From contig NW_013654947.1 of assembly GCF_000499385.1 (NCBI RefSeq), positions 55,249-72,881 on the forward strand: a stretch of 17,633 nt of DNA, read 5' to 3'. How positions within the stretch are numbered: the stretch's first letter is position 1; each line of letters opens with the position of its first letter. Made by a program: the position numbers and the translations under genes. This DNA is from Eimeria necatrix. Its lineage: Eukaryota; Apicomplexa; Conoidasida; Eucoccidiorida; Eimeriidae. Positions 3,140-5,043 of the stretch are shown one piece after another. Below the pieces are notes generated by a model that saw only the letters and a program-made list of their open reading frames with translations, searched no databases and had not been told where the DNA came from.

Positions 3140-5043
3140 AGGCGAACTGCTGCACCGCGACATGAAGCCTTCGAACATTCTGCTGAACAGCGAGTGCCAC
3201 GTGAAGGTGGCGGATTTCGGGTGAGAGGATATCCCTGAGTGGGAGGCGTCTGAGAGTTTGCAGGGGCCCATTAGGGTTTAGGGTTTAGGGTTTGGGGTTT
3301 AGGGTTTAGGGTTTAGCTCGAACATTTGCATTTCCCGAGCTTGCGCCCACCCGGTCCGCAGCGCGCGCAGCGAATTCCCGCGCTGCCGCGGGCGCTGCGT
3401 GGCCGCGGGCCGCGGCCCGCGGGCCTAGGGTTTAGGGTTTAGGGTTTAGGGTTTAGGGTTTAGGGTTTGGGCGCAGGCTGGCGCGGTCAGTGGCGCACGC
3501 AGAGGGCGGCGACGCCAGCAGCAACCCAGTGCTGACCGACTACGTGGCCACCAGGTGGTACAGAGCCCCCGAGATTCTGTTGGGTTCGACTTGCTACACG
3601 AAGGGCGTGGACATGTGGTCTTTGGGGTGCATTTTGGGGGAACTTCTCTCCGGCAAACCCATCTTTCCCGGTCCGCAAACCCTAAACCCTAAACCCTAAA
3701 CCCTAAACCCGCGACTTGGGGGCAGTTTGCGGCAACTGCTTCCGGGGTAACTCGGCCTTCCCGGTACTCATATCCTAAACCCTAAACCCTAAACCCTAAA
3801 CCCGCGACTTGGGGGCAGTTTGCGGGAACTGCTTCCGGGGAAACTCGGCTTTCCCGGTACTCATACCCTAAACCCTAAACCCTAAACCCTAAACCCGCGA
3901 CTTGGGGGCATTTTGCGGGAACTGCTTCCGGGGAAACTCGGCTTTCCCGCCGCGCAAACCCTAAACCCTAAACCCGGCCTGGGGGGCATTTGGGGGGAAC
4001 TCCTTTCGGGGAAACCCACCTCTCCTGGTACTCAAACCCTAAACCCTAAACCCTAGACTTGGGAGCATTTTGCGGGAACTGCTTCCAGGGTAACTCAGCT
4101 TTCCCGGTACTCAAACCCTAAACCCTAAACCCTTGACTTGGGGGCATTTTGGGGGAGCTGCTTTTGGGGAAGCACATCTTTCCCGGCACCCAAACCCTAA
4201 ACCCTAAACCCTTGTCTTTGGGGGCATTTTGGGGGAACCGCTTTAGGGCATGCCCGTCTTTCCCGGTACTCAAACCCTAAGCCCTAAACCCTAAAAACTA
4301 AACCACCGACTTTGGGGGCATTTTGGGGGAGGTGCTTTTGGAGAAGCACATCTTTCCCGGTACACAAACCCTAAACCCTAAACCCTAAACCCTCGACTTT
4401 GGGGACTACTTTGGGGGAGGTGCTTTTGGGAAACACATCTTTCCCGGTACTGAAACGCTAAACCCTAAACCCTAAATAAATCCTCGGCTTTGGGTGCATA
4501 CTGGGGAGGTGCTTTCCGCGAAGCCCATCTTTCCCGTTACACAAACCCTAAACCCTAAACCCTCGACCCCAAACGCTGCACCCCCCCAGCACACATCTGC
4601 AAACACTGCACCCGAAACCCTCCCAGCGAACACTAAACACTAAACCCTTCTCAGCGAACACTAAACCCTAAACCCTCCTCAGCAAACACTAAACCCTAAA
4701 CCCTCCTCAGCAAACACTAAACACTAAACCCTCTTCAGCGAACAACCTTCAAGCCCTCTTCGGCAAACGGAAAACGCCAAACCCTCTTCAGAAAACCCTA
4801 AACGCTAAACACTCTTCAGCAAACCCTAAACCCTTTTTGCCCGCTCCTTACGAGGCCCCAAACCCCATTTTGCGGTTCCCCTGGGATAATCACTCGCGGT
4901 GCAAACCCTAGCTGCAGAAACCCTAAACCCTAACGAGCTGCCTAAACCCTAAACCCTAGCTGGAAACCCTACACCGCCCTCGCTTTGCCCTGGACGCTGC
5001 CTTGCCCCGTTTGTGTGCTGCTGCTGCTCCTCTGCTGCTGCTT

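What the first reader, a model, noticed from the sequence alone, without database searches (positions are those of the whole stretch)
3620..4563. Intron 5 built from serial copies of the exon 5 end plus telomere-like repeats
Seen: the last ~55 nt of exon 5, including the splice donor, followed by CCCTAAA repeats, recur about ten times in the intron that follows, with diverged bodies and spacings of ~77-93 bp. Inference: the exon-intron boundary was duplicated repeatedly, probably by slippage or unequal exchange seeded by the telomere-like heptamers, so the intron grew out of its own upstream exon. I know of no described case of this exact kind.
Basis: partly seen in the sequence, partly recalled or inferred. 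Interest (0 to 1): 0.9.

Follow-up and report, generated by a model that had tools for sequence, protein, structure and literature searches.

The report
Exon edge multiplied inside its intron
In a kinase gene of a coccidian parasite (probably Eimeria), ten worn copies of the end of one exon, most with its splice-site GT, stand in a row in the next intron between telomere-like repeats; similar copies beside other exons suggest that such repeats likely make introns grow by duplicating exon edges.

Summary
The last 54 nt of exon 5 (3617-3670) plus the donor recur ten times at 3711-4542, separated by (AAACCCT)n tracts. All ten copies beat 1000 of 1000 shuffles. The exon encodes a kinase motif kept, with small changes, in the seven coccidian proteins I fetched, so copying ran from exon to intron.

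Two corrections. The copies resemble each other more than the exon, neighbours most of all, and share silent differences from it; so one founder copy was probably amplified, rather than the exon copied ten times. And the intron was not born this way: a 39-nt intron sits at the same position and phase in a distant, apparently eukaryotic contig.

Nor is it unique. One copy is identical over 49 nt. Five of ten joints lie at or near a tract, one with ACCC microhomology. But 0 of 20 loci taken mostly in list order had such copies.

Best reading: microhomology-primed tandem duplication at telomere-like tracts, then tract-to-tract expansion.

The parts
2073..6887 (+). MAPK15/ERK7-type protein kinase gene, 9 exons in my model
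   Evidence: Spliced frame open to a stop; Pfam Pkinase 3.8e-65; 90-94% identity to named Eimeria proteins
3477..3670 (+). exon 5, ends ...VDMWSLGCILGELLSGKPIFP
   Evidence: motif kept in the 7 coccidian orthologues read (S or C at one place, one has R for K)
3617..3670 (+). part of exon 5 that was copied (source, about 54 nt)
   Evidence: alignment
3671..5081 (+). intron 5, 1411 nt, donor GTCCGC, acceptor GCGCAG
3677..3710 (+). first telomere-like tract (AAACCC x5) right after the donor
3711..3769 (+). copy 1, GGTACTC
3804..3863 (+). copy 2, GGTACTC
3897..3955 (+). copy 3, donor GT lost (GCCGCGC)
3976..4034 (+). copy 4, GGTACTC; highest whole-unit identity to the exon (74%), reads GELLSGKPTSPG
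4054..4113 (+). copy 5, GGTACTC
4132..4191 (+). copy 6, donor GT lost (GGCACC)
4211..4271 (+). copy 7, GGTACTC
4306..4365 (+). copy 8, GGTACAC
4393..4453 (+). copy 9, GGTACTG
4483..4542 (+). copy 10, CGTTACAC: a GT one base upstream of the donor-equivalent place
4543..4563 (+). last tract of the array
4599..4834 (+). second compound array in the same intron: 28-nt unit of heptamers plus about 13 nt of spacer that I could not tie to the exon, 8.6 copies

Best explanation
The first 63% or so of intron 5 is a tandem array whose unit is the last 54 nt of exon 5, its splice donor and the telomere-like tract behind it; it likely arose when the exon edge was once duplicated together with that tract and the copy was then multiplied by misalignment between tracts. 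Shown: the array, its exon source, and the likeness of neighbour to neighbour. Shown: similar edge-plus-tract copies beside other coding edges of this genome, on the donor and the acceptor side, from identical to decayed. Inferred: the first duplication starts at a short match between the tract and a point some 25-75 nt inside the exon (slippage or template switch, perhaps because the G-rich strand folds and stalls replication). Inferred: later copies come from slippage or unequal exchange between the tracts, which are direct repeats. Inferred: the copies are pseudo-exon debris, spliced out with the intron, and the outermost donor at 3671 is the one used.
For: Array and shuffles. Neighbour-wise amplification; the tree supports one group, copies 1, 2, 3 and 5. 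Single founder: every copy is nearer to another copy than to the exon. Of the exon-versus-copy differences in coding columns shared by at least 9 of 10 copies, the three free of alignment doubt (3645, 3648, 3654) are third-position sites, silent by my reading of the codons, as is 3651 (7 of 10). Tract as joint: length variation is in the tract. Recurrence: L019, L022, L023, L034, L037, L038, L043, L055 in the 69-locus scan with joints; identity of the aligned pieces ranges from 49/49 (L022) to 39/48 (L037). Coding support: BipA/TypA PDB match 1.3e-10 (Pfam gave only sub-cut-off EFG matches for it); PDEase_I 2.6e-9 and EMC4 9.4e-16; PMCA 7.5e-8 at L038, where the match lies in the preceding exon and the copied exon alone gives 0.33. 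Joints at or within a few bases of a tract: L022, L023 second copy, L034, L038, L055 (5 of 10), and L043 at a single heptamer; L022 shares ACCC between tract and exon. Old intron: same position and phase, 39 nt, in L077.
Against: 0 of the 20 loci L057-L076, most of them taken in list order, carry such copies, so tracts next to a GT do not usually do this. GT is not enriched beside tracts: 275 of 10205 CAAACCCTAAACCC occurrences have GT five bases up, under the naive 1 in 16. Clear microhomology is seen at one joint; 4 of 10 joints (L019, L029, L037, first L023 copy) do not begin at an intact tract. The founder joint in the window is too old to read. The tree has 7 of 8 inner branches open, sets the exon beside copy 4 with weak support (62/75), and with one exon row cannot itself test that the copies are one clade. 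Concerted evolution could mimic a single founder. No reads, transcripts or other Eimeria genome could be examined.
Confidence: 0.72

Rival explanations
1. Serial independent copying: the exon edge itself was copied into the intron again and again, each unit a separate event.
For: At L022 one copy is identical to the exon and a third unit looks strongly decayed by eye; at L019 one copy is 45/48 while others are weak or fail shuffles. So recopying can happen. The weakly supported tree sets the exon beside copy 4.
Against: In the window no copy is closer to the exon than to another copy, neighbours are most alike, and 9-10 of 10 copies share silent differences from the exon.
Confidence: 0.12
2. 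The copies are functional alternative donors or regulated decoy exons, kept by selection on splicing.
For: 7 of 10 copies keep GT at the exact donor place and an eighth has one a base upstream.
Against: The tract brings in-frame TAA right after exon 5 and between copies, copy 1 has its own stop and the frame shifts after copy 4. Single units show no RNA-folding excess against mononucleotide shuffles, z between -1.6 and 0.7. GT retention is about what 64-74% identity and shared descent would leave.
Confidence: 0.08
3. Insertion of pieces at breaks by end joining, telomerase or reverse transcription, rather than replication slippage or unequal exchange.
For: Joints with few or no shared bases, and a short stretch between tract and copy at L023 and L055, look like end-joining joints.
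Against: Head-to-tail order and neighbour likeness fit local tandem copying. Reading from tract toward exon the G strand points at the exon, the reverse of telomere addition to a broken exon (from sequence).
Confidence: 0.06
4. Assembly error.
For: Identical or near-identical copies at L045, L055 and L056 could be affected; L055's array lies at a contig end and L023 abuts a run of N.
Against: The window copies differ from each other by 5-40%, which an assembler cannot invent.
Confidence: 0.02

Closest known systems
Minisatellite that repeats a splice donor at human IFI6 (6-16), Turri et al. 1995
   Same: A tandem repeat at an exon-intron junction multiplies the splice donor (one sentence and the reference title seen in PMC4526556; the paper itself not read).
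   Different: There, per that sentence, two downstream units are used as donors; short 12-nt units are recalled, not read. Here units are 78-94 nt, each a long exon end plus a telomere-like tract, use is unknown, and the pattern recurs beside other exons, on the acceptor side too.
Intron gain by tandem duplication (Rogers model; potato RdRp, PMC4974935, passages read)
   Same: A tandem duplication of exon-edge sequence ends up in an intron.
   Different: That model creates an intron. Here the intron is old (39 nt at the same place in L077) and only grew.
Interspersed AAACCCT heptamers of Eimeria genomes (E. falciformis PMC4287421; E. tenella PMC9131526; passages read)
   Same: Same heptamer, mostly outside coding sequence in E. 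falciformis; this genome has 10205 CAAACCCTAAACCC occurrences.
   Different: In the passages I read, neither paper describes copies of exon edges joined to these tracts.

Membership tests
Minisatellite overlapping a splice junction (IFI6 type) | tandem units starting in the exon and carrying the splice donor | tested here: met
   (GT kept at the exact place in 7 of 10 copies)
Minisatellite overlapping a splice junction (IFI6 type) | repeated donors used in transcripts | not testable with these tools
   no transcript data for this gene
Intron gain by tandem duplication | the intron is new and bounded by duplicated sequence | tested here: not met
   same position and phase, 39-nt intron in L077; acceptor at 5081 lies outside the array
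Introner or transposon insertion | the same body dispersed at many sites | tested here: inconclusive
   a genome search with the array found tract-like matches; the bodies read by eye at four of these loci were unrelated to the unit; only the best candidates are scored by that tool
De novo telomere addition at a break | TTTAGGG strand runs away from the broken exon | tested here: not met
   CCCTAAA follows the exon end in sense, TTTAGGG precedes exon starts
Eimeria telomere-like interspersed repeats | AAACCCT heptamer tracts away from chromosome ends | tested here: met
   (many contigs; chromosome positions unknown)

The most novel reading that the evidence does not exclude
Telomere-like tracts in Eimeria genomes are duplicators: where one lies against an exon, it can turn the exon edge and its splice site into new intron again and again, at both intron ends, so that introns lengthen by swallowing copies of their own exons and keep a fossil of earlier exon sequence.
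Probability: 0.4. Interest if true: 0.76.

Novelty: new variant of a known kind. Interest (0 to 1): 0.62.

Why it matters
How introns lengthen is mostly put down to transposons and random insertion (my general knowledge). Here a genome holds coding edges copied in series beside telomere-like tracts, at stages from identical to decayed, so the steps can be read and ordered. It gives a test bed for what such tracts do to nearby genes; the E. falciformis paper leaves the 'generating mechanism' of these repeats open (passage in PMC4287421). It also poses a clean splicing question: how one donor is chosen when seven near-copies keep the GT within 900 nt.

Tried and rejected
A special class of introns framed by CCCTAAA at the donor and TTTAGGG at the acceptor. 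It looked striking at L014, L017, L019 and L022, but GT is not enriched beside tracts (275 of 10205). GGGTTTAGGGTTTGNGCAG has 158 sites against 1 in the reversed-pattern control, but that control destroys the heptamer, so it is no fair test. I make no claim.

A one-sided polarity of duplication. In one search most one-sided cases lie 5' of the C-strand tract, but loci had been chosen partly by that flank; right-only cases exist (L018 both strands, L031, L054). No claim.

RNA structure of single units: z between -1.6 and 0.7; nothing. G-quadruplex stalling: the first tract has 5 C-runs, so the other strand could form one, but three later tracts have only 2; kept as a guess.

Weak copies that failed: L019 v1, v3 and v4 do not beat shuffles (127, 170 and 381 of 2000 reach them), v5 does weakly (13 of 2000). 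L037 copy 2 fails against the exon (527 of 2000) but matches copy 1 (0 of 2000). L043 first copy fails (107 of 2000); its second and third give 1 and 7 of 2000. C182 (L046) looked like a copy by eye and was dropped.

Limits of the scan: 7 of 76 loci were left out as overlaps (L004, L008-L013); of the 69 used, L007 and L035, L015 and L057, L016 and L040 still overlap, and L044 and L072 in part. 19 of 69 loci had some pair at 32 or more, on either flank; not all are exon edges. The 99.9% point of cross-locus pairs is 24-25, but the 99.99% point is 54-120, which I put down to those overlaps and shared repeats. L029, L045 and L056 had no confirmed coding edge.

Coding checks without result: no Pfam match for the L022 piece, the short L037 piece or the L038 piece; only a weak 0.19 match for L055. 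L037 longer exon: MACPF 0.024, under the cut-off. Orthologues in other Eimeria genomes: I had no collection of them; a scan of bacterial and archaeal genomes gave one relative, on a contig that looks eukaryotic (L077).

Literature: the listings (one search listed 8 of 17 papers) showed no paper on exon-edge copies with telomere-like tracts; passages of three Eimeria genome papers did not mention them either. Subscription papers are mostly missing, so absence is weak.

Full report
What is there. The window is G000:C26:55249-72881 of an unnamed 44.0-Mb assembly. It carries a nine-exon MAPK15/ERK7-type kinase at 2073-6887 whose nearest named proteins are from Eimeria (90-94% identity) and Cyclospora (91%); I therefore call it probably Eimeria, species unknown. 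Exon 5 ends at 3670 and intron 5 runs to 5081. From 3711 to 4542 stand ten units of 59-61 nt that match the last 54 nt of exon 5 and the six bases of the donor, each followed by an AAACCCT tract. All ten beat 1000 of 1000 shuffles. Seven keep GT at the exact donor place; copies 3 and 6 have lost it and copy 10 has one a base upstream. The source encodes VDMWSLGCILGELL[S/C]GKPIFPG, present in the seven coccidian proteins I fetched, with R for K in one, so the exon came first.

How the array grew. Every copy is nearer to some other copy (best identity 78-95%) than to the exon (64-74%). Neighbours are most alike: identity against separation r = -0.71, 0 of 10000 permutations as low; mean 81% for adjacent and 73% for other pairs. 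Closeness to the exon does not change along the array (r = -0.06). A tree gives the exon the longest end branch and supports one group, copies 1, 2, 3 and 5 (96/94); the other seven inner branches are open, one of them setting the exon beside copy 4 (62/75), and one exon row cannot test whether the copies are one clade. Of the coding differences shared by at least nine copies and free of alignment doubt, the three at 3645, 3648 and 3654 are third-position and silent by my reading (Leu, Leu, Gly), as is 3651 in seven copies; 3624 is third-position too but sits beside an indel. So the founder was likely a copy of an earlier version of the exon, and much of the difference arose in the exon under protein-level selection. 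This is a small sample. Bodies hold their length while tracts vary from 18 to 34 nt, so tracts are where the array stretches.

The intron is older than the array. A contig in a bacterial MAG record that looks eukaryotic (L077, 64% identity in the best segment) has an intron at the same place and phase, 39 nt long with donor GTCCTG, against 1411 nt here. Duplication lengthened the intron; it did not create it.

It is not alone. I searched the same genome by pattern and fetched loci around hits. A scan of 69 of 76 loci (seven left out as overlaps; 207,542 nt; 572 tracts; 1471 tract pairs within 2.5 kb) compared the flanks of tracts; 19 loci had a pair at score 32 or more, where the 99.9% point of cross-locus pairs is 24-25 and the 99.99% point 54-120. 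Copies joined to tracts at coding edges: BipA-like gene (L019, 45/48; PDB match 1.3e-10), PDEase_I gene (L023, two copies, 36/41 and 31/33; Pfam 2.6e-9 across the intron), EMC4 gene (L034, 70/74; Pfam 9.4e-16; the tract edge there has no GT, so this may be a coding end rather than a donor), and three anonymous reading frames (L022 49/49, L055 39/40, L043 25/29). In mirror image, acceptor plus exon start: a PMCA-like gene (L038, 77/81; PDB match 7.5e-8, lying in the preceding exon, the copied exon alone 0.33) and a reading frame with a weak MACPF match of 0.024 (L037, 39/48). At L037 the farther copy matches the nearer copy and not the exon, the same founder-then-amplify pattern.

Fresh joints. 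At L022 the copy starts at ACCCTTTCC, where exon and tract share ACCC. At L034, L038, L055 and the second L023 copy the copied stretch begins at or within a few bases of a tract, and at L043 at a single heptamer. At L019, L029, L037 and the first L023 copy it does not (ten pairs). L034 suggests that a splice site at the edge may not be needed, which points to a DNA-level process.

Limits. These loci were chosen by tract and donor patterns, so no rate can be drawn from them. In the 20 loci, mostly in list order, none had copies. GT beside tracts is not enriched. L055's array lies at a contig end and L023 abuts a run of N. No reads, RNA or sister-species genomes were available.

Function. The tract supplies an in-frame TAA directly behind exon 5 and between copies, copy 1 has a stop of its own, and frames drift after copy 4. 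Single units show no folding signal. I take the copies as spliced-out debris; use as decoy donors is possible and untested.

Place among known things. The nearest is the splice-donor minisatellite of human IFI6 (seen only as a sentence and a title). Tandem-duplication intron gain (PMC4974935, passages) works alike but makes new introns. Eimeria heptamer repeats are well known (passages in PMC4287421 and PMC9131526), but the passages I read say nothing of exon-edge copies. I rate it a new variant of a known kind.

Noticed in passing
window 2157, 2220, 2780, 2979, 3021, 5788, 7027, 14358, 14944: Palindrome GTGTACGTACAC recurs 9 times with up to one mismatch (mean 0.00 in 200 shuffles), several in introns of the kinase gene; 33 exact copies in 21 of 68 held loci counted (one of these, L001, is window sequence and a few overlap). 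Looks like a genome-wide element or protein-binding site.
   Followed up: partly
window 4599-4834: A second compound array in intron 5: 28-nt unit of heptamers plus spacer not tied to the exon, 8.6 copies, the same kind of structure without exon sequence.
   Followed up: partly
genome pattern list: Among the 100 listed of 275 GTNNNCAAACCCTAAACCC places, GTCCGC is the commonest form (14 by my count); the donor of exon 5 and the tract-side GT at L022, L023 and L055 are also GTCCGC.
   Followed up: no
L034:1450-1550: The EMC4-like reading frame runs into the telomere-like tract, which would give it a tract-encoded stop (AANPKP*), unless it is spliced earlier (my reading).
   Followed up: no
L045 and L056: Stretches of tract plus flank repeated with 100% identity (60-nt flanks three times at L045; 221 nt twice at L056), very recent duplication or assembly artefact.
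   Followed up: no
L038 minus strand, donor near 1670: The PMCA-like intron seems to need a GC donor (GCAAGT) to keep the frame (my reading).
   Followed up: no
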